DNA of 36,452 nucleotides from Caldilineales bacterium. Its GTDB lineage: Bacteria; Chloroflexota; Anaerolineae; J102. The stretch spans positions 1 to 36,452 of the forward strand of contig JAIBAP010000059.1 of assembly GCA_019695115.1 (NCBI GenBank), given 5' to 3'. A program made the translations under genes and the position numbers. Within the stretch, counting starts at the first letter, position 1; each line of letters opens with the position of its first letter. Positions 28,239 to 36,452 of the stretch are shown here, piece after piece. The notes below the pieces were generated by a model. The model was not told the origin of the DNA and made no database searches. It saw only the letters and a list, made by a program, of their open reading frames with translations.

Positions 28239-28304
28239 TTGACAAGCCGCGGATTCTACTGTATGGTTTGCCACAATGAAATCGATACCATGAAATCGAT
28301 ACAT
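28239..28304 (+). promoter_or_regulatory. Promoter with two tandem LacI-type operator sites (first URO-D gene)
   Basis: TTGACA (28239-28244), 17 bp, TATGGT (28262-28267). Two abutting 14-bp sites follow: TGAAATCGATACCA (28277-28290) and TGAAATCGATACAT (28291-28304). Both have the central CG of LacI-family operators and the same left half as the perfect palindrome before the LacI-URO-D gene. Confidence 0.75.
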
Positions 28305-28333: not shown

Positions 28334-29452
28334 ATGAACTCGAAAGAAAGAATGCTCACGGCCCTGCACCGGGGCAAGCCCGACCGCCTGCCCGTGACCG
28401 TGCATCAGTGGCAGCAGTATCATCTGGACAAGTATCTGGGCGGGGTGGAGCCGCTGGAGGCCTTCCAGATTGTGGGGATGGATGCCTCGATCCAATATTT
28501 CGCCGACATGGGGCAGTTCTGGCTGGTGGACGCCGACTTCAGCAAGTTCTCGACGCCAGAATGGCGAGACGAGATGACGGTCGTCAGCAGCGACCCCGAC
28601 AACCGCATCAACCACCATGTGGTCACCACGCCCGAAGGGGTGTTGACCTACAAGACGGCCGGCAACCTCATGACCACCTGGGTGACGGAATACCTGGTCA
28701 AACACGACGAGGACATCGACCTGATCCGCAAGTACATGCCCGTCCCGGCCCTCGACCCCAAACCGGTGGCCGAACTCTACGACCGCATCGGCGACAAGGG
28801 CATCTTGCGCGGCTTCGTCTGGGGCGACCAGGCGGGATGCTGGCAACACGCCTGCTGCCTGCACCCCACCGAGGACATGATCCTGGCCTGCATCGACAAA
28901 CCCGACTGGGTGCACGAATTCCTCGGCATCCTGTTGGAGAAGAAACTGCGCTCGGTGGAGACGATGGCCGGGGCGCGCTTCGACCTGATCGAGACCGGAG
29001 GCGGCGCCGCCTCCTCGACCGTGATCTCGCCCGCCCTGCACGCCGAATTCTGCACGCCCTACGACCGCCAGCTGCATGACGCCCTGCATGGCGCTGGCTT
29101 CGACCTCATTGCCTATCATACCTGCGGCGGCACGTTCAAGATCGAGAATCTGATCATGGCCAACGGCTGCGATGTCTCGGAGACGCTGGCGCCCAAAAGC
29201 ATCGGCAGCAACCAGGAGCCGTGGGATTTCCAGGCCAAAGTTGGCGGCCGGCTGGCGGTGATCGGCGGCATGGATCAGTTCTCGGTGCTCAGCGATGGCA
29301 CGCCCGCACAGATCCGGGCGATGGTTTTCAAGCTGTTCGAGACGGTGGGCAGAGATGGCGGCTATGTCTGCTCGGCTTCCGACCATTTCTTCGAAACGCC
29401 GGTCGAGAACCTGCGCATCTTCGCCGAGGCCGCGCACGAGTGCGTGTATTGA
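28334..29452 (+). CDS. URO-D/MtaA-like methyltransferase family protein (HxC type)
   Basis: A 372-aa protein of the uroporphyrinogen decarboxylase superfamily. It starts with ERMLTALHRGKPDRLPV, the family N-terminus, but lacks the RQAGR substrate motif of true HemE, so it is probably a corrinoid- or cofactor-dependent methyltransferase-like enzyme. The zinc motif of MtaA-type enzymes (HxC plus a distant Cys) is present: H262-T-C264 (YHTCGGT) and C346 (GGYVCSASDHF). The end PVENLRIFAEAAHE is typical. CAGGAG precedes the ATG. It is transcribed from a promoter with tandem LacI-type sites and is the most complete metal-site version of the four URO-D domains here. Substrate unknown. Confidence 0.87.
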   Translation: MNSKERMLTALHRGKPDRLPVTVHQWQQYHLDKYLGGVEPLEAFQIVGMDASIQYFADMGQFWLVDADFSKFSTPEWRDEMTVVSSDPDNRINHHVVTTPEGVLTYKTAGNLMTTWVTEYLVKHDEDIDLIRKYMPVPALDPKPVAELYDRIGDKGILRGFVWGDQAGCWQHACCLHPTEDMILACIDKPDWVHEFLGILLEKKLRSVETMAGARFDLIETGGGAASSTVISPALHAEFCTPYDRQLHDALHGAGFDLIAYHTCGGTFKIENLIMANGCDVSETLAPKSIGSNQEPWDFQAKVGGRLAVIGGMDQFSVLSDGTPAQIRAMVFKLFETVGRDGGYVCSASDHFFETPVENLRIFAEAAHECVY

Positions 29453-30179: not shown

Positions 30180-30244
30180 TTGACAAACGCTCTGGGCTGC
30201 GTTATCATCGCCATGATGAAATCGATTTCATGATATCGATTTAC
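30180..30244 (+). promoter_or_regulatory. Promoter with two tandem LacI-type operators (LacI-URO-D gene)
   Basis: TTGACA (30180-30185), 17 bp, TATCAT (30203-30208). Two abutting 14-bp sites follow: TGAAATCGATTTCA (30217-30230), a perfect palindrome that fits the LacI/CcpA consensus TGWAANCGNTNWCA at all positions, and TGATATCGATTTAC (30231-30244), more degenerate. They sit at about +3 to +30 and predict autorepression. Confidence 0.8.
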
Positions 30245-30294: not shown

Positions 30295-32580
30295 GTGACC
30301 ACCATTAGCGATGTCGCTAAACGAGCGGGCGTTTCGCCAGTCACGGTTTCACGGGTCATCAACGACCTGGGAAACGTGAGCCTGGCCACGCGCGAGCGGG
30401 TGGGGTTGGCGATCCAGGAATTGGGCTATGTGCCGAGCGGGGTGGCGCAGAGCCTGCGCTCGAAACGGACGCGCTCGCTGGCCCTGATCGTGCCCGACAT
30501 CCAGAACAGCTTCTGGACGACGGTGGCGCGTGGGGTCGAGGACGCCGCCCAGAGCAAGGGCTACTCGGTCTTCCTCTGCAACACCGACGAAAACCCCGCC
30601 AAGCAGCGACGCTATCTCGAGGTGGTGATCGGCCAGCGGGTCGATGGCGTCATCATCGCCCCCTACGATTCCGACGGCGCCAACCTGGCGCCGCTGCGCG
30701 ACCGCGAGATTGCCACGGTCGTCATCGACCGCCACATCGAGGGGTGGGACACCGACACGGTCAACAGCGACTCGATCGCCGGGGCGCGGGCGCTGACGCA
30801 ACATCTCCTCGGCCTGGGCCACCAACGCATCGCCATCATCACCGGCCCGGCCACCACCACCACCGCCGCCGACCGCGTGACGGGCTATCGCCTGGCCCTG
30901 AACGAAGCCGGCCTGACGCCTGACGAGCGGCTGATCAAATATGGTGAGTTCCGTTCGGCGGTGGGCGAGCGGCTGACGCACGAGGTCTTCGACGCCGGGC
31001 TGGCGCCGACGGCCATCTTCGCCGCCAACAACGTCATCGCCATCGGCGTCATGGCCGCCCTGGAAAAACGCGGGCTGCGCGTCCCGCACGACATCGCCCT
31101 GGTCTGTTTCGACGACCTGCCCAACACCTCGCTGCTGTTCCCGTTCTTCACCGTGGCGGCCCAACCGGTGTACGAAGTCGGCGTCAATGCCGCCCAATTG
31201 CTGTTCAGCCGGCTGGAAGCCGAGGCCCCGCTGCACCCGCGCCATGTGGTGCTTCCCACCCGTCTCGTCATCCGCCACTCCTGCGGCAGCAAATGGCAGC
31301 GCGGCATCGACTTTGGCATCAGCCTGCCCCTGCCTGCCGCCGGCCAAGACGAGACCCGGCTGGTGCCGCCGCTCGGCCCGGCCGCGCTGCGGTTGGCGGC
31401 GATGGGATGGGACGGCGCCGCCGCTGGCGAGACCCGGCCGACCAGTTACGACAACTCTGACATCGACCGGCTGCTCAAGGCCCTGCGCCATCAGGAACCC
31501 GACCGCATCCCCCACCTGGAGTTCTGGATCAGCAGCCGCCCGGTGCTGGAATATGTGCTGGAACGACCGCTGGAGAACCCAAGCCCGGACGAGAAGACGG
31601 GCGAGCCGCTCATCCAGCCGGAGGAACACATCGAGTTTGCACAACGGTTGGGCATGGATGCGGTGACCTGCCGTTTCATCTGGCGGCCCAACAATGTCTA
31701 TCGCCAGGCGTCGGACGGGAGCAGGCACTATGTGGATGGCACGGTCAAGACCTGGGCCGACCTGGAGAACCTGGAGCCGCCGCCGTCGCTGTTAGATCAA
31801 CTCAACCATCTGGAGCGTTATCTGCGGGCCAGCCAGGGCACGGGGGTGGGTGTGGCGCCCGATTTCAGTTCGTTTTTCGACAGCGCCCTCCTGGCCGTTG
31901 GCATGCAGGACGCCCTCTACCGCTTCCACGATGACCGCGCCTTCCTGGAGCATCTGATGGATACGCTTCTGGCCCACCAGGAGCGCGTCGTGCAGGCAGT
32001 CTGCGACCGTTTTGGCGATGATCTGGCCTTCGTCCTGATCAACGATGACGTGGCTCACAATGCCGGCCTCCTCATCCACCCCGACATGTTCGCCCAGATC
32101 TTCCCGCACCGCCTGCGCCGGCTGATCACCCCGGCCAAAGAGCGCGGCAAAGCGGTGGTCTTCCACTCGGATGGCAGGCTCGATCGCCTGCTGCCGCTGC
32201 TGCACAGCGCCGGTGTAGACGCCGTCCACCCGGTCGAGCCGGAAGCCAACGACATCCGGGAGCTCAAACACGAGTGGCAAGGCAAACTGGCCTTCATCGG
32301 CAATATCCCCACCTTGCTGCTGGCGCACGGCAACGCCGCCAGCATCGAGGAGCGTGTGCGCGTTCAGTGCCAGCAATTGGGGCCAGGCGGGGGCTATGTG
32401 CTTGGCAGCTCGACCAGCATCATGGAGGGCATCCCCCCGCGCAATTTCGTGACCATGACGCAGGCCGCGCACAAGTACGGCCGCTATGGCTCACTCGGCA
32501 GCCTGGCCTGGCAGTTCGACCCCGTGGTTTCGAGCAACGGCCGGGTGACGGCCGGCACGACGAAGGAGATGACAAGATGA
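30295..32580 (+). CDS. LacI-type repressor fused to a URO-D/MtaA-like methyltransferase domain
   Basis: A 761-aa protein with two complete halves. Residues 2-55 form a LacI helix-turn-helix and hinge (TISDVAKRAGVSPVTVSRVIND, GVAQSLRSKRT). Residues 60-340 form a periplasmic-binding-protein-like sensor domain ending in the usual LPTRLVIRHSC. A linker of about 55 residues follows. Residues 395-745 form a URO-D-like barrel (LLKALRHQEPDRIPHLEFW). Its metal site reads H624-S-D626 instead of HxC, and the distal Cys is replaced (GGYVLGSSTSI). The frame is continuous and no start codon with a ribosome binding site occurs at the junction. The GTG start (30295) follows a weak GAGG. It overlaps the next URO-D gene by 4 bp. 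It probably controls the tandem operators at 28277 and 30217. Confidence 0.88.
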   Translation: MTTISDVAKRAGVSPVTVSRVINDLGNVSLATRERVGLAIQELGYVPSGVAQSLRSKRTRSLALIVPDIQNSFWTTVARGVEDAAQSKGYSVFLCNTDENPAKQRRYLEVVIGQRVDGVIIAPYDSDGANLAPLRDREIATVVIDRHIEGWDTDTVNSDSIAGARALTQHLLGLGHQRIAIITGPATTTTAADRVTGYRLALNEAGLTPDERLIKYGEFRSAVGERLTHEVFDAGLAPTAIFAANNVIAIGVMAALEKRGLRVPHDIALVCFDDLPNTSLLFPFFTVAAQPVYEVGVNAAQLLFSRLEAEAPLHPRHVVLPTRLVIRHSCGSKWQRGIDFGISLPLPAAGQDETRLVPPLGPAALRLAAMGWDGAAAGETRPTSYDNSDIDRLLKALRHQEPDRIPHLEFWISSRPVLEYVLERPLENPSPDEKTGEPLIQPEEHIEFAQRLGMDAVTCRFIWRPNNVYRQASDGSRHYVDGTVKTWADLENLEPPPSLLDQLNHLERYLRASQGTGVGVAPDFSSFFDSALLAVGMQDALYRFHDDRAFLEHLMDTLLAHQERVVQAVCDRFGDDLAFVLINDDVAHNAGLLIHPDMFAQIFPHRLRRLITPAKERGKAVVFHSDGRLDRLLPLLHSAGVDAVHPVEPEANDIRELKHEWQGKLAFIGNIPTLLLAHGNAASIEERVRVQCQQLGPGGGYVLGSSTSIMEGIPPRNFVTMTQAAHKYGRYGSLGSLAWQFDPVVSSNGRVTAGTTKEMTR

Positions 32581-33641
32581 CACTCAGTTCTCGCCAGCGC
32601 GTGCTGACGGCGTTTTCGCACCAGGAACCGGATCGGACGCCCTGCTGGCTGGGCGCTTCGCCGGAATGGAAGCAATTGGCGCGCGACTACCTGGGCCTGG
32701 CCGACGACGAGGCCCTGCTGCACTACCTGGGCGATGACTTCCGCCGGGTGTTCAGCAAGTATGCCGGGCCGGACGAACGCAGCCCGGACAAGATGCTATC
32801 GCCCGAGGCCACCTGGCGCTCGCCCTTCGACATCGAACGACACGGCTATGGCTATGGCATGCCCCTGGTCAGTCCCTTGAAGAACGCCACCCTGGCCGAG
32901 GTCCACGCCTTCCCCTGGCCCGACCCGGAGTGGATGGACGTCTCGCACATCCGCGACGAGGCGCGGCAATACGAACACGAGTACGCCATCCTCGGCGGCG
33001 AATGGTCGCCCTTCTGGCACGATGCCATCGACCTGCTCGATTTCGACGGCCTCATCTACCAGATGTACGACGACCCGGAGGTGGTGGATGCGGTGATGAT
33101 GTACACGTCCGAGTATTACCTAGCCGTCAGCAGGCGGATTTTCGAGGCCGTGGGCGACGCCATCGACATCTTTTTCATCGGCAACGACTTCGGCGCCCAG
33201 ACCGGGCCGATGCTCAGCCCCCCGCTTTTCCGCCGCTTCGTCCTCCCACATCTGCAGAAATTCGCCGATCTCGGCCATGAATTTGGCAAGCGGGTGGTGC
33301 TGCACACCGACGGCTCGCTCCGCCCCCTCCTGCCCGACATGATCGCCATCGGTCTCGATGGCATCCAATCGGTGCAACCCTATTGCACCGGCATGGCGCT
33401 GGACGGCCTCAAGCGGGACTTTGGCCACGACCTGACCTTCATGGGCTGCGTCGATACCCAGGCCCTGATCGAGACCACGGCCGAGGGCGCCCGCCAGCTC
33501 ACCCTGCGCACCCTGGAGACGATGATGCCCGGCGGCGGCTTCATCGCCTCGCCCAGCCACGATTACCTGCTCCCCGAAACCCCGGTCGAAAACGTCATCG
33601 TCATGTACGAGACGATCCGGGAGTGTGGGGAATATCGGTGA
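32577..33641 (+). CDS. URO-D/MtaA-like family protein (HxD type)
   Basis: A 354-aa URO-D-superfamily protein starting RQRVLTAFSHQEPDRTPCW. It lacks the HemE RQAGR motif. The metal-ligand position reads H243-T-D245 (VLHTDGSLRPLL), as in the preceding fusion protein, and the distal segment GGFIASPSHDYLLPETPVENV has no Cys. The ATG overlaps the upstream stop (ATGA) and AAGGAG lies at the right distance, so it is translationally coupled to the LacI-URO-D protein. The two HxD proteins may work as a pair. Reaction unknown. Confidence 0.87.
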   Translation: MTLSSRQRVLTAFSHQEPDRTPCWLGASPEWKQLARDYLGLADDEALLHYLGDDFRRVFSKYAGPDERSPDKMLSPEATWRSPFDIERHGYGYGMPLVSPLKNATLAEVHAFPWPDPEWMDVSHIRDEARQYEHEYAILGGEWSPFWHDAIDLLDFDGLIYQMYDDPEVVDAVMMYTSEYYLAVSRRIFEAVGDAIDIFFIGNDFGAQTGPMLSPPLFRRFVLPHLQKFADLGHEFGKRVVLHTDGSLRPLLPDMIAIGLDGIQSVQPYCTGMALDGLKRDFGHDLTFMGCVDTQALIETTAEGARQLTLRTLETMMPGGGFIASPSHDYLLPETPVENVIVMYETIRECGEYR

Positions 33642-33644
33642 TCG

Positions 33645-33721
33645 GAGATTAGAGATTGGAGATTGGAGATTGGAGATTGCCGATCCCCAATCTCTAATCT
33701 CTAATAACCAATAACCAATCC
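33645..33721. repeat. Heptad array with internal inversion, 11 units
   Basis: Eleven consecutive 7-bp units: GAGATTA, four GAGATTG, CCGATCC, CCAATCT, CTAATCT, CTAATAA, CCAATAA, CCAATCC. The right arm is the reverse complement of the left (13-bp perfect arms GATTAGAGATTGG / CCAATCTCTAATC) and the heptad register is not broken by the inversion. It ends just before the rhaM ribosome binding site. Confidence 0.93.
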
Positions 33722-33737
33722 CAAAGGAGTCCCACCC

Positions 33738-34076
33738 ATGAAACGCTACGGTCAAGTCATCGGCGTCAAACCAGAACGATTGGAGGAATACAAACGGTAT
33801 CATGCTGCCGTCTGGCCGGAGATTTTGGATATGATCCGGCAGTGCAATATCGTCAATTACTCGATCTATTACAAAGAGGTAGCTCCAGGAATGCCGCTGC
33901 TTTTCGCCTTCTTCGAATATATTGGCGATGATTTTGACGCCGACATGGCCAAGATGGCTGCCGATCCCATGACGCAAAAGTGGTGGGATGTGATGATGCC
34001 CATGCAAGCGCCGGTGCCCTTGCGCGCAGATGGCGAATGGTGGGCGAATATGGAAGAAGTCTTCCATACAGATTGA
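33738..34076 (+). CDS. rhaM: L-rhamnose mutarotase
   Basis: A 112-aa protein of the RhaM (RhaU) family, which interconverts alpha and beta anomers of L-rhamnose (dimeric alpha/beta ferredoxin-like fold). Seen: MKRYGQVIGVKPERLEEYKRYHAAVWPEIL with the conserved Tyr and His, NIVNYSIYYK, LLFAFFEYIGDDFDADMAKMAADPMTQKWWDVM with the Trp-Trp pair, then MEEVFHTD at the end. Full length. Strong ribosome binding site AAAGGAG. No rhamnose isomerase or kinase is in the window, so it may act on another 6-deoxyhexose or a methylated rhamnose. Confidence 0.92.
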   Translation: MKRYGQVIGVKPERLEEYKRYHAAVWPEILDMIRQCNIVNYSIYYKEVAPGMPLLFAFFEYIGDDFDADMAKMAADPMTQKWWDVMMPMQAPVPLRADGEWWANMEEVFHTD

Positions 34077-34077
34077 T

Positions 34078-34190
34078 ATTGGTTATTGGTTATTGTTGTA
34101 TGTCATTGCGAGGCCGTAGGCCGAAGCAATCCCAAACTTTCTCATGCGATTTGGGGATTGCTTCCTTGCACTAATAACAAGTAACCAATC
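34078..34190. repeat. Nested repeat element: heptamers around a TCATTGCGAG...GAAGCAATC palindromic repeat
   Basis: ATTGGTT heptamers (34078-34098) and inverted-type AATAACA/AGTAACC heptamers (34172-34190) flank a core containing GGCC-GTA-GGCC and the 11-bp inverted pair GAAGCAATCCC (34123-34133) / GGGATTGCTTC (34154-34164). The core is a known widespread type of bacterial dispersed repeat. Confidence 0.88.
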
Positions 34191-34214
34191 TCCCCTTTCC
34201 AAAGGATGCTACAC

Positions 34215-35384
34215 ATGGAACGCTCCGCCAAAACATTAGCCAAAGTCGAAAGAATGCGCCGGGCGCTGCATCACCAGGAGGCCGATCGAGTGCCGATCAG
34301 CGATTTCTTCTGGGGCAGCTTCGTCAACCGTTGGCGCCAGGAGATGGGCCTGCCCGCCGATGCCGACATCTACACCTACTACGACCTCGATTGGCAGGTC
34401 ACCATCCCCAACATGGACCCGCACATCAAGTCGTTCGAGACGCTGAAAGAGACGGACGAGGATGTGGTGGTCAAGACCGGTTTCGAGGCCACCATCCGCA
34501 AAAAGTTCGCCGACCCCATGCCCGAATGGCTGGAGTTCGGCCTGACCAGCATCGAGCAGACCGCGACTTTCCAGTTTGACGACCCCTGGGACGAGCGCCG
34601 CTATTTCAGGGCCGGGGACAACCAGATCGCCGGGGTGGGCGACGGGTTCGCCCGCAACTCGCCCGCCTGGGTAGAGACAGTCAAAAAGCTGCACCCGGAT
34701 TTCGCCGTCTTCGGCAGTGTGTGCGAGGCCAACGAATACATGACCCGGATCGTCGGCCCGGAGAACAATCTGCTGTGGGTGGCGCTCTATCCCGACGAAT
34801 ACGCCCGCTTCATCGAACGCACAATGGAGTTCGCCATCGGCGTCCTGCAGGCCCAGATCAAGGCTGCCGATGGGCTTCTGGATGGCATGGTCATCTGGGG
34901 CGATGTGGCCTACAAGAAGGATGTCTTCTTTGCCCCCGACTGGTGGCGGGCGCACTACAAGCCCTATCTGACCGAGATGGTGCGGATTTGCCACGAGGCC
35001 GACCTGCCGGTGATCTACCACGGCTGCGGCAATGTCAAGCGCATCATCCCCGACTTCATCGAGACCGGCATCGACGCCTACAACCCGCTGGAAGCGAAAG
35101 CCGGGCTGGATGTGGTGGATCTGCGCCGGCAATACGGCCACACTTTCGGCTTCTGCGGCAACATGAGCGTGATCGACTGGGCCGAGCTCAGCCCCGCCGA
35201 ACTCAAGCCCATCGTTCTCCGCAAGCTGAACGCGGCCAAAGGCGGCGGCATGATCTTCCAGTCTGATCACTCCGTCCCTACCAACGTCTCCGCTGCCAAC
35301 TACGATTATGTGGTCAAGCTCGTGCGCGAGTGGGGGCAGTATCCGCTGAAGTTGGGCGAGTATGATATTCCTGATTTGAATTGA
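34215..35384 (+). CDS. URO-D/MtaA-like methyltransferase family protein (HxC type, third ligand missing)
   Basis: A 389-aa URO-D-superfamily protein with the N-terminal pattern RMRRALHHQEADRVPISDFFW. It has H269-G-C271 (YHGCGNVKR), matching the HxC part of MtaA-like zinc sites, but the distal segment reads GGMIFQSDHSVPTNVS without Cys. It also shows DGMVIWGDVAYKKDVFFAPDWW, a segment found in sugar-catabolic URO-D relatives. ATG 34215 is chosen because AAAGGA lies 9 nt upstream; the ATG at 34206 would be too close. A repeat element lies before it, and an array separates it from the creatininase gene. Confidence 0.87.
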   Translation: MERSAKTLAKVERMRRALHHQEADRVPISDFFWGSFVNRWRQEMGLPADADIYTYYDLDWQVTIPNMDPHIKSFETLKETDEDVVVKTGFEATIRKKFADPMPEWLEFGLTSIEQTATFQFDDPWDERRYFRAGDNQIAGVGDGFARNSPAWVETVKKLHPDFAVFGSVCEANEYMTRIVGPENNLLWVALYPDEYARFIERTMEFAIGVLQAQIKAADGLLDGMVIWGDVAYKKDVFFAPDWWRAHYKPYLTEMVRICHEADLPVIYHGCGNVKRIIPDFIETGIDAYNPLEAKAGLDVVDLRRQYGHTFGFCGNMSVIDWAELSPAELKPIVLRKLNAAKGGGMIFQSDHSVPTNVSAANYDYVVKLVREWGQYPLKLGEYDIPDLN

Positions 35385-35482
35385 GTAGACAAGGAAACAA
35401 GTAGACAAGTAGACAAGGAAGAGAAGTCAACTTGCAGCTTGCCACCCGCCACCTGCCACCCGCCACCCACCACCTGCCCCCC
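35383..35482. repeat. Composite tandem array touching the creatininase start codon
   Basis: Six 8-bp units (35383-35430; GAGTAGAC, AAGGAAAC, AAGTAGAC twice, AAGGAAGA, GAAGTCAA) then seven 7-bp units (35431-35479; CTTGCAG, CTTGCCA, CCCGCCA, CCTGCCA, CCCGCCA, CCCACCA, CCTGCCC) and a C-run ending at ATG 35483. No Shine-Dalgarno sequence remains. Same modules and order as 23667-23785 on the other strand. Confidence 0.93.
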
Positions 35483-36262
35483 ATGCACCTCCACCGCCTC
35501 CTACCCCACCAGTTCCGGCAAGCCATCGATGAGAAATGGCCGTTGCTCGCGCCCACCGGCTGCATCGAATATCATGGCCCGCACCTGCCGCTGGGCGTGG
35601 ATACGATGATCGTCGAGGAGTTGCTGGCGCGGGTGAGCAAGCGCATGCCGTGCATCGTGGCCCCGCCATTGTGGTATGGCCCTGCCAGCTACGCCGTCTC
35701 TGGCCCGGAGCTGGGCTCGCTGGACGTGAGCACCGAGCGTTTCGGGCGACACGTGAAGGACGTGCTGGCCGGGTTCTGGGACATGGGCTTCCGGTGGATC
35801 ATCGTCGGCGTCCACCATCAGGGCCTGGACGGGCCGGAATCGCTGGCCATCCGCCAGGCCGCTGCCGAGGTCATGTTCGAGCGCAGCTACGCCGAGCGCG
35901 GCAAAGCCTGGTGGGGCAAGGCCCCGTTGGAGGCGCAGGACAACGTCTTCGAGCGCATCCAGGTCTGGCCCAGCGTGCTGCCCGAGGCGGCAGCCCAAAA
36001 GATCGAGATGGGCGACCACGCCGGCTTCTACGAAACCTCGTACATCCTGGCCGCGCATCCAGAGCTCGTCGATCTGAACAAGTTGGGCATGAATCCCCCC
36101 TGGTACACGAACACATCGACCAGCAGAGCCCGCGAGGCCACAGCCCAGGCCGGTGAACGGATGCTGGGGATCATGGCCGACGCCTGGGTGAGCAGACTCT
36201 CGGCCATGACCCGCCCTAAACGTCCTTCTCCGAATGAAGTGACAGTTAGCGGTTTGTTTTAG
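35483..36262 (+). CDS. Creatininase-family metal-dependent hydrolase
   Basis: A 259-aa protein of the creatininase superfamily. E29, H31 and D40 (PTGCIEYHGPHLPLGVDT) fit the metal-binding spacing of the family, and GDHAGFYETSYILAAHPELVDL matches the later conserved region. The usual NGHGGN motif is replaced by VGVHHQGLDG. Creatininases open cyclic amides; some relatives open cyclic sugar or keto-inositol intermediates (IolN-type 3-dehydro-scyllo-inosose hydrolase), and the HHQ variant with WYGPASYAV may point to that side. The context of rhamnose mutarotase and URO-D proteins also suggests carbohydrate catabolism. The start lacks a ribosome binding site because a C-rich array precedes it. Confidence 0.85.
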   Translation: MHLHRLLPHQFRQAIDEKWPLLAPTGCIEYHGPHLPLGVDTMIVEELLARVSKRMPCIVAPPLWYGPASYAVSGPELGSLDVSTERFGRHVKDVLAGFWDMGFRWIIVGVHHQGLDGPESLAIRQAAAEVMFERSYAERGKAWWGKAPLEAQDNVFERIQVWPSVLPEAAAQKIEMGDHAGFYETSYILAAHPELVDLNKLGMNPPWYTNTSTSRAREATAQAGERMLGIMADAWVSRLSAMTRPKRPSPNEVTVSGLF

Positions 36263-36266
36263 CGTA

Positions 36267-36343
36267 GTAATTGGTAATTGGTAATCAGATATCCCTCAAT
36301 TACCAATTACTAATTACCAATTACTAATTACCAATTACCACAA
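36267..36343. repeat. Heptad array with internal inversion, 11 units
   Basis: Units: GTAATTG twice, GTAATCA, GATATCC, CTCAATT, ACCAATT, ACTAATT, ACCAATT, ACTAATT, ACCAATT, ACCACAA. The right side is largely the reverse complement of the left, with the 7-bp register kept throughout. Total length equals that of the array at 33645-33721. Confidence 0.92.
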
Positions 36344-36443
36344 TACCACACACAGGAGGCAAAGAAGACGACGAATATCCACGCTTATCCACCATACTAT
36401 CCTTATTCCACCCTTTCAATCTCATCAAGAAGGAGAGACTCCC

Positions 36444-36452
36444 ATGTCTGAA
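36444..36452 (+). CDS. Start of a gene cut by the window end
   Basis: ATG TCT GAA follows AAGGAGAG at the proper distance (36430-36437), so translation most likely begins here. Only three codons are visible, so nothing can be said about the product. It is probably part of the same regulon. Confidence 0.6.

What the first reader, a model, noticed from the sequence alone, without database searches (positions are those of the whole stretch)
33738..36262. Rhamnose mutarotase and creatininase-like hydrolase inside a methyltransferase regulon: possible pathway for O-methylated deoxysugars or cyclitols
The neighbourhood combines an anomer-converting enzyme for L-rhamnose, URO-D-like methyltransferases and a creatininase-family hydrolase with a variant HHQ motif. 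No rhamnose isomerase, kinase or aldolase is present. One pathway that would use all three is demethylation and ring opening of a methylated 6-deoxyhexose or keto-inositol. This is speculative.
Basis: inference. Interest (0 to 1): 0.6.

Follow-up and report, generated by a model that had tools for sequence, protein, structure and literature searches.

The report
Operon for demethylating and using fucose
This is the front half of a gene cluster of a Chloroflexota bacterium that looks built to take up a methylated form of the sugar L-fucose, pull the methyl group off with a vitamin B12 protein and feed the sugar into metabolism, switched by a repressor fused to a copy of one of its own enzymes.

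Summary
The genes are there, but the sugar label is wrong and the cluster is larger. The "rhamnose mutarotase" (33738-34076) is closest to solved L-fucose mutarotases (117 bits, against 37 for E. coli YiiL/RhaM). The window is a whole contig whose last 127 bases equal the first 127 of contig C68. C68 continues with a sugar ABC transporter, a methyltransferase-type corrinoid protein, another URO-D protein and a true L-fucose isomerase (1058 bits, cut-off 775). The same order recurs in relatives. So a methylated 6-deoxyhexose pathway is supported, as an L-fucose rather than rhamnose or inositol pathway. A parallel rhamnose version lies elsewhere in the genome and in relatives.

Unexpected: the regulator at 30295-32580 is a LacI repressor fused in frame to a copy of the corrinoid-linked URO-D enzyme. 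I found it in 10 inspected fucose loci; 8 of the 9 with upstream DNA share a promoter with LacI-type operators. The fused copies diverge faster than the free enzymes and 7 of 10 have lost the HxDG motif, suggesting a sensor made from a spare enzyme. O-demethylation itself is inferred, not shown: one URO-D (34215-35384) pairs with the mutarotase across phyla, mostly without a nearby corrinoid gene.

The parts
28277..28290 (+). Second operator-like site, TGAAATCGATACCA (2 mismatches), just before the 28334 URO-D gene
   Evidence: 2 matches in the window, 0.05 expected by chance, 0 of 100 shuffles with 2
28334..29452 (+). URO-D superfamily protein (W0), probable member of the regulon
   Evidence: PF01208 place; mtaA_cmuA 58.5 bits, below cut-off; orthologues in L115, L133, L134
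30180..30208 (+). Promoter: TTGACA (30180-30185), 17-base spacer, TATCAT (30203-30208)
   Evidence: sequence; same layout in 8 of the 9 fused loci with upstream DNA (by eye)
30216..30244 (+). Operator: perfect 16-base palindrome ATGAAATCGATTTCAT and an overlapping second site just after the -10
30295..32580 (+). LacI repressor fused in frame to a URO-D domain (761 aa; LacI about residues 1-333, URO-D 391-728)
   Evidence: PF00356, PF13377, PF01208 in one ORF; fusion seen in 10 inspected loci
32577..33641 (+). URO-D superfamily protein (W2), candidate methyltransferase
   Evidence: PF01208 1.8e-26
33738..34076 (+).
   Evidence: PDB 7byu/7byw 3e-33 against 1x8d 2e-8; TIGR02625 below cut-off
34215..35384 (+). 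URO-D superfamily protein (W4) with HGCG and FCGN motifs; partner of the mutarotase across phyla
35483..36262 (+). Creatininase-family hydrolase with HHQ in place of the creatininase HYE
   Evidence: PF02633 3.6e-37; alignment to creatininase; conserved HHQ
36326..36452 (.). 127 bases identical to the start of contig C68: the operon continues there
36444..36452 (+). First codons of the sugar-binding protein of the ABC transporter, cut by the contig end; complete at C68:119-1486

Best explanation
The window end plus contig C68 form one L-fucose-type catabolic operon with corrinoid-dependent O-demethylation. Proposed flow: a sugar ABC transporter imports an O-methylated L-fucose or a small glycoside of it; the PF05336 enzyme interconverts its anomers; URO-D superfamily methyltransferases move the methyl group from the sugar oxygen to the cobalt of the corrinoid protein (C68:3811-4446), the best candidate being the URO-D gene next to it (C68:4792-5865); the corrinoid is kept active by RACo/AcsV-type activators and unloaded to tetrahydrofolate by AcsE-type methyltransferases encoded elsewhere; free L-fucose enters metabolism through FucI (C68:6245-8062). 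The operon is switched by a LacI repressor fused to a copy of the corrinoid-linked URO-D enzyme; that copy probably reports the methylated sugar, or the state of the corrinoid protein, to the DNA-binding part. Shown by computation: gene content, contig continuation, conserved order, families, fusion, operator-like sites, faster divergence of the fused copies. Inferred: substrate, every reaction, direction of methyl transfer, sensor role.
For: 127-base identity of contig ends. FucI above both equivalog cut-offs. Mutarotase nearest to L-fucose mutarotase. Corrinoid protein with PF02607 and PF02310, best NCBIfam matches all methyltransferase corrinoid proteins. Corrinoid gene and its URO-D side by side in 6 of 7 loci with a free enzyme of this clade (in L185 only a partial corrinoid gene at the contig end). 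Known O-demethylase and haloalkane MT1 enzymes belong to the UroD superfamily (PMC13222342, passages and section 9). Genome holds RACo on C28 and C16, AcsE-like proteins, CFeSP subunits. C68 URO-D fold nearest to MtaA 4ay7 (model pLDDT 67). Independent rhamnose twin: G006 has mutarotase, URO-D, RhaA and corrinoid protein in a row. Fused regulator in 10 loci, operators, divergence.
Against: No methyl ether substrate is shown. No MT2 or activator gene lies in the operon itself. W4 with the mutarotase occurs in Spirochaetota, Acidobacteriota, Planctomycetota and Bacteroidota loci, usually without a corrinoid gene in the fetched stretch (Corr in 7 of 80 loci, all of them records titled Chloroflexi/Chloroflexota, Anaerolineae, Caldilineae, Caldilineales or Caldilineaceae), so W4 need not be a corrinoid enzyme. 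The family f15 loci (L115, L133) have FucI and four or more URO-D genes but no corrinoid gene in view. Fused regulators also sit in fucose loci with no corrinoid gene in the fetched stretch (L189, L200, L206). No fuculokinase or aldolase was seen in the G000 operon. In the window itself the fused URO-D keeps HxDG and NDD, so it may still be catalytic.
Confidence: 0.58

Rival explanations
1. An L-fucose operon in which the URO-D proteins do some other chemistry on fucose or fuculose (for example metal-dependent C-C or C-O cleavage), with the corrinoid pair serving a side reaction.
For: W4 and the mutarotase occur together in 41 of 80 loci over several phyla, with FucI in a Spirochaetes MAG (L252) and with alpha-L-fucosidases in Bacteroidota (L305; in L304, Carboxylicivirga sediminis, W4 and fucosidases without a detected mutarotase), mostly with no corrinoid gene in view. 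W4 has a different motif, HGCG and FCGN, from the HTDG of the corrinoid-linked enzyme.
Against: Corrinoid protein and URO-D adjacent in 6 of 7 free-enzyme loci; the only profile match of W4 in the PDB is MtaA, a methyltransferase, weakly (0.0037). Corrinoid genes outside the fetched stretches were not searched.
Confidence: 0.25
2. The sugar is fucose, but the methyl group removed is on a linked group (a methyl glycoside or a methoxylated aglycone), not on the fucose ring.
For: Known UroD-superfamily O-demethylases act on methoxylated aromatics (PMC13222342, section 9).
Against: Sugar isomerase, mutarotase and sugar transporter share the operon with the methyltransferases; no aromatic-catabolic gene was seen in it.
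Confidence: 0.1
3. One reading: L-rhamnose or a keto-inositol is the substrate and the creatininase opens a ring.
For: PF05336 family name; creatininase profile match to IolN (9e-20).
Against: FucI downstream; L-fucose mutarotase similarity; IolN score 70.9 of 245; creatininase not seen in 8 of 14 close loci (some of these contigs are cut).
Confidence: 0.04
4. A methyl-sulfur or other methylotrophic system like the type 1 mlp clusters, next to a fucose operon by chance.
For: URO-D proteins resemble MtaA.
Against: All MtaA/CmuA models score far below cut-off; the order is kept in several families with fucose genes.
Confidence: 0.03

Closest known systems
Corrinoid-dependent O-demethylase systems of acetogens and archaea (MtvB, OdmB, VdmB, MtoB) and the related Cdm system
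   Same: UroD-superfamily methyltransferase beside a small corrinoid protein; RACo-type activators and methyl-THF methyltransferases in the genome
   Different: Sits in a sugar operon with transporter, mutarotase and FucI; the characterised members named in section 9 act on aromatics or haloalkanes
Type 1 mlp gene clusters (Kountz and Balskus, PMC10418091; abstract, outline and one passage seen)
   Same: Clusters of MtaA-like UroD-superfamily proteins of uncertain substrate, widespread in bacteria and archaea
   Different: Those are tied to methyl-sulfur or methyl-selenide; the paper has no occurrence of sugar, carbohydrate, LacI or Chloroflex
Isomerase-type L-fucose catabolism (FucI, mutarotase, kinase, aldolase)
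   Same: FucI equivalog and an L-fucose mutarotase-like protein
   Different: Several URO-D proteins and a corrinoid protein added; kinase and aldolase not seen in the G000 operon
LacI-family sugar repressors
   Same: HTH, sugar-binding-protein-like domain, palindromic sites at the promoter
   Different: Carries a C-terminal URO-D domain homologous to an enzyme of the operon

Membership tests
Corrinoid O-demethylase system | MT1 of the UroD superfamily | tested here: met
   PF01208 in each URO-D protein scanned; fold nearest to 4ay7 MtaA
Corrinoid O-demethylase system | Cognate corrinoid protein beside the MT1 | tested here: met
   C68:3811-4446, PF02607 and PF02310; adjacent in 6 of 7 free-enzyme loci
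Corrinoid O-demethylase system | MT2 (methyl-corrinoid:THF) and activating enzyme | tested here: inconclusive
   Present in the genome (C28 AcsE-like and RACo, C16 RACo, C9 AcsE-like), not in the operon
Corrinoid O-demethylase system | Methyl transfer from a methyl ether to cobalt | not testable with these tools
   needs an enzyme assay
L-rhamnose mutarotase RhaM (TIGR02625) | Equivalog score at or above 99.6 bits | tested here: not met
   51.5 bits
L-fucose mutarotase (7byu/7byw type) | Full-length sequence similarity well above RhaM | tested here: met
   117.5 bits over residues 2-112 against 37.4 for 1x8d; no equivalog model was matched
L-fucose isomerase FucI | Equivalog cut-offs 775 and 850 bits | tested here: met
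   1058 and 1034 bits
Creatininase / IolN | Equivalog cut-offs 235 / 245 bits | tested here: not met
   79.7 and 70.9 bits
MtaA/CmuA methyltransferases (TIGR01463) | Subfamily cut-off 235.4 bits | tested here: not met
   27.6 to 84.0 bits in the eight proteins matching it
LacI repressor | LacI HTH and periplasmic-binding-like domain | tested here: met
   PF00356 9.6e-18, PF13377 4.5e-34
LacI repressor | Palindromic operator with central CG at its promoter | tested here: met
   binding itself not tested

The most novel reading that the evidence does not exclude
Anaerobic bacteria have a corrinoid route for stripping methyl groups from deoxysugars (fucose and, in a parallel set of loci, rhamnose), and its fucose branch is controlled by a one-protein sensor made by welding a spare, decaying copy of the sugar methyltransferase onto a LacI repressor, so that the ex-enzyme domain reads the methylated sugar or the corrinoid protein directly.
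Probability: 0.4. Interest if true: 0.78.

Novelty: new variant of a known kind. Interest (0 to 1): 0.62.

Why it matters
O-methyl sugars cap many plant and microbial glycans (recalled). The demethylation route I know of (recalled) uses oxygen through a cytochrome P450; a corrinoid route would explain how anaerobes use these sugars and would give a function to part of a very large group of URO-D proteins (30 places in this genome alone). The fused repressor is a natural case of an enzyme copy that seems to be turning into a sensor, with free relatives in the same operon for comparison.

Tried and rejected
Rhamnose reading: rejected for this locus, kept for C16. IolN / cyclitol ring opening: rejected on score and patchy presence of the creatininase. 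Fusion as assembly error: rejected, it recurs in 10 loci from ten genomes. Operator search in the whole genome: 28 places with up to 2 mismatches, about 8 expected by scaling; only the window site is exact; the others were not followed, so no regulon outside the locus is claimed. W4 structure model was poor (pLDDT 47) and was not searched. Perfect CG-centred palindromes were not found near the other fused genes; the sites there are imperfect. Literature: ten searches, of which 17, 24 and 25 returned nothing; no listing showed a corrinoid sugar demethylase or a LacI-URO-D protein, but the library holds open-licence papers only. For PMC13222342 I saw passages and section 9; for PMC10418091 the abstract, outline and one passage; for all others the search listings only.

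Limits: the 70% identity split was chosen after seeing the data. 62 of 67 mutarotase places were fetched (5 not: G383, G315, G275, G233, G299). The script put L139 (70%, no URO-D) in the lower group; I count it in the upper one. FucI and RhaA samples were the top-scoring places not already fetched, not random. Neighbourhood labels come from small profiles built here from a few sequences each.
Full report
OBSERVATION. The window holds the reported genes: a PF05336 protein (33738-34076), a URO-D protein (34215-35384), a creatininase-family protein (to 36262), with further URO-D proteins at 28334-29452 and 32577-33641 and in the C-terminal half of a 761-residue protein at 30295-32580 whose N-terminal half is a LacI repressor. 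The genes from 30295 to 36262 all run on the + strand with short gaps.

THE SUGAR IS FUCOSE-LIKE. The PF05336 protein scores 51.5 bits against the L-rhamnose mutarotase equivalog (cut-off 99.6). Its best solved matches are L-fucose mutarotases 7byu and 7byw (117.5 and 117.4 bits), far above E. coli YiiL 1x8d (37.4) and the other rhamnose mutarotases (32 to 33).

THE LOCUS CONTINUES. The window is a complete contig of 36452 bases. Its last 127 bases are identical to the first 127 of contig C68 of the same assembly. C68 then carries a sugar-binding protein, two permeases, a corrinoid protein (PF02607 3.3e-22, PF02310 1.1e-26), a URO-D protein and an L-fucose isomerase (PRK10991 1058 bits over a cut-off of 775; TIGR01089 1034 over 850). 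The join is inferred from the overlap and from synteny: in G009 the order URO-D, mutarotase, URO-D, creatininase, binding protein, permeases, corrinoid protein, URO-D, FucI lies on one contig (L110). G100 (L132) shows mutarotase, URO-D, transporter, corrinoid, URO-D, FucI. In G001 the operon breaks at a contig end within the corrinoid gene and a second contig starts with corrinoid, URO-D, FucI (L111, L185).

HOW TIGHT IS THE LINK. In 396 genomes of the class, the window mutarotase has 67 places in 64 genomes at E up to 1e-22. I fetched 62 of the 67. Of the 15 at 70% identity or more, 14 have a URO-D gene within 4 kb (exception L139, G134); of the other 47, 5 do (L147, L149, L153, L155, L165). 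The threshold was set after looking. Among 20 top-scoring FucI places not fetched before, 5 have a URO-D gene in the fetched stretch (L193, L196, L199, L200, L206); among 20 top-scoring RhaA places, also 5 (L212, L217, L220, L222, L229).

A RHAMNOSE TWIN. The second PF05336 gene of this genome (C16) lies among four URO-D genes with RhaA, a protein with a rhamnosidase hairpin domain, a DUF4037 protein and a beta-lactamase-fold protein. In G006 a mutarotase, a URO-D gene, RhaA (701.8 bits, cut-off 572) and a corrinoid protein stand in a row. This is an independent pairing of a deoxysugar isomerase with the methyl-transfer machinery.

THE METHYL SIDE. The UroD superfamily includes corrinoid O-demethylases (MtvB, OdmB, VdmB, MtoB) and haloalkane dehalogenases (PMC13222342, passages and section 9). 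The predicted fold of the C68 URO-D protein is nearest to the methyltransferase MtaA (4ay7, 6.6e-10), then to uroporphyrinogen decarboxylases (the model is middling, pLDDT 67). No hemE model appears among its NCBIfam matches and the MtaA/CmuA models score far below cut-off, so it is a member of the superfamily, not of those families. The genome holds RACo proteins on C28 and C16, AcsE-like methyltransferases on C28 and C9, and corrinoid iron-sulfur protein subunits on C28. Thus the parts of a complete system exist, but MT2 and activator are not in the operon; in G005 a RACo gene lies 2.4 kb beyond the regulator gene.

THE FUSED REGULATOR. One open frame joins LacI and URO-D in the window and in nine other loci: L111, L112, L113, L114, L130, L135, L189, L200, L206; L206 is cut at its start. 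Three further candidates (L238, L239, L286) were seen but not inspected. Five near loci (L115, L131, L133, L134, L136) have a LacI gene not fused. In the tree of 109 URO-D domains the ten fused ones and seven free ones form one group (SH-aLRT 100), six of the seven free ones being next to a corrinoid gene and the seventh (L135) behind a fused gene on a short contig (quick method). Over 191 columns that never vary among the seven free enzymes, the fused copies differ at 33 to 97 (17 to 51%); each free enzyme, left out in turn, differs at 1 to 17%. HxDG is kept in 3 of 10 fused copies (window, L111, L200) and changed in 7. So the fused copies look freed from catalysis in most lineages, not clearly in the window.

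THE SWITCH. In the window TTGACA, 17 bases, TATCAT is followed by ATGAAATCGATTTCAT and an overlapping second site. By eye, 8 of the 9 fused loci with upstream DNA (all but L189, where the gene lies behind others) have TTGACA, a -10-like box and one or two similar sites. A further site stands before the 28334 URO-D gene: 2 matches in the window with 0.05 expected. In G001 the same site precedes a class II aldolase that scores under the rhamnulose-1-phosphate aldolase cut-offs (157.4 of 170 and 116.1 of 400.95), and in G010 the transporter genes.

RESULTS AGAINST. The URO-D protein W4 (34215-35384) is found far outside Chloroflexota: 280 relatives in named genomes, best 80 kept. Of these 80, 41 have the mutarotase, 7 FucI, 7 a corrinoid gene (all Chloroflexota-type records) in the fetched stretch. 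In Spirochaetes L252 the order is LacI, FucI, mutarotase, W4; in Bacteroidota L304 and L305 W4 lies by GH29 and GH95 genes. W4 is thus a fucose-linked protein whose chemistry may not need a corrinoid. Its HGCG motif was found in 79 URO-D frames of these 80 loci, 78 of them with a later CGN. Many Acidobacteriota loci show no fucose gene in view.

THE CREATININASE. It keeps HHQ where creatininase has HYE and was seen in 6 of the 14 closest loci. It is an accessory; its role is unknown, perhaps hydrolysis of an acyl or lactone group. This is the weakest part of the account.

VERDICT. The sugar is most likely L-fucose, the methyl carrier a corrinoid protein on the next contig, and the most novel element is the repressor fused to a copy of the pathway enzyme.

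Noticed in passing
G000 C16:11515-20460 (L042) and L118, L127, L128, L129: Rhamnose-type clusters pair RhaM with several URO-D genes and, in several of them, a DUF4037-like protein and a beta-lactamase-fold-like protein of unknown role (family tested in L042 only).
   Followed up: partly
G000, 30 URO-D places: URO-D genes stand near other sugar genes in this genome: FGGY kinase and class II aldolase on C42, FGGY kinases on C77 and C18, GH38 on C11, GH31 on C43.
   Followed up: partly
L304 (Carboxylicivirga sediminis JR1): A named strain carries W4 beside GH29 and GH95 family genes with no corrinoid gene within the fetched stretch.
   Followed up: partly
window 34096-34172 and 35377-35507: Intergenic stretches match many places of the genome: dispersed short repeats between genes (70 matches in all).
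   Followed up: no
G000 C9:67242-75152 (L317): MttB-like gene, AcsE-like gene and two corrinoid proteins in one array: a separate methylamine-type system.
   Followed up: no
L286 (Betaproteobacteria MAG): Candidate LacI-URO-D fusion outside Chloroflexota beside the mutarotase and W4.
   Followed up: no
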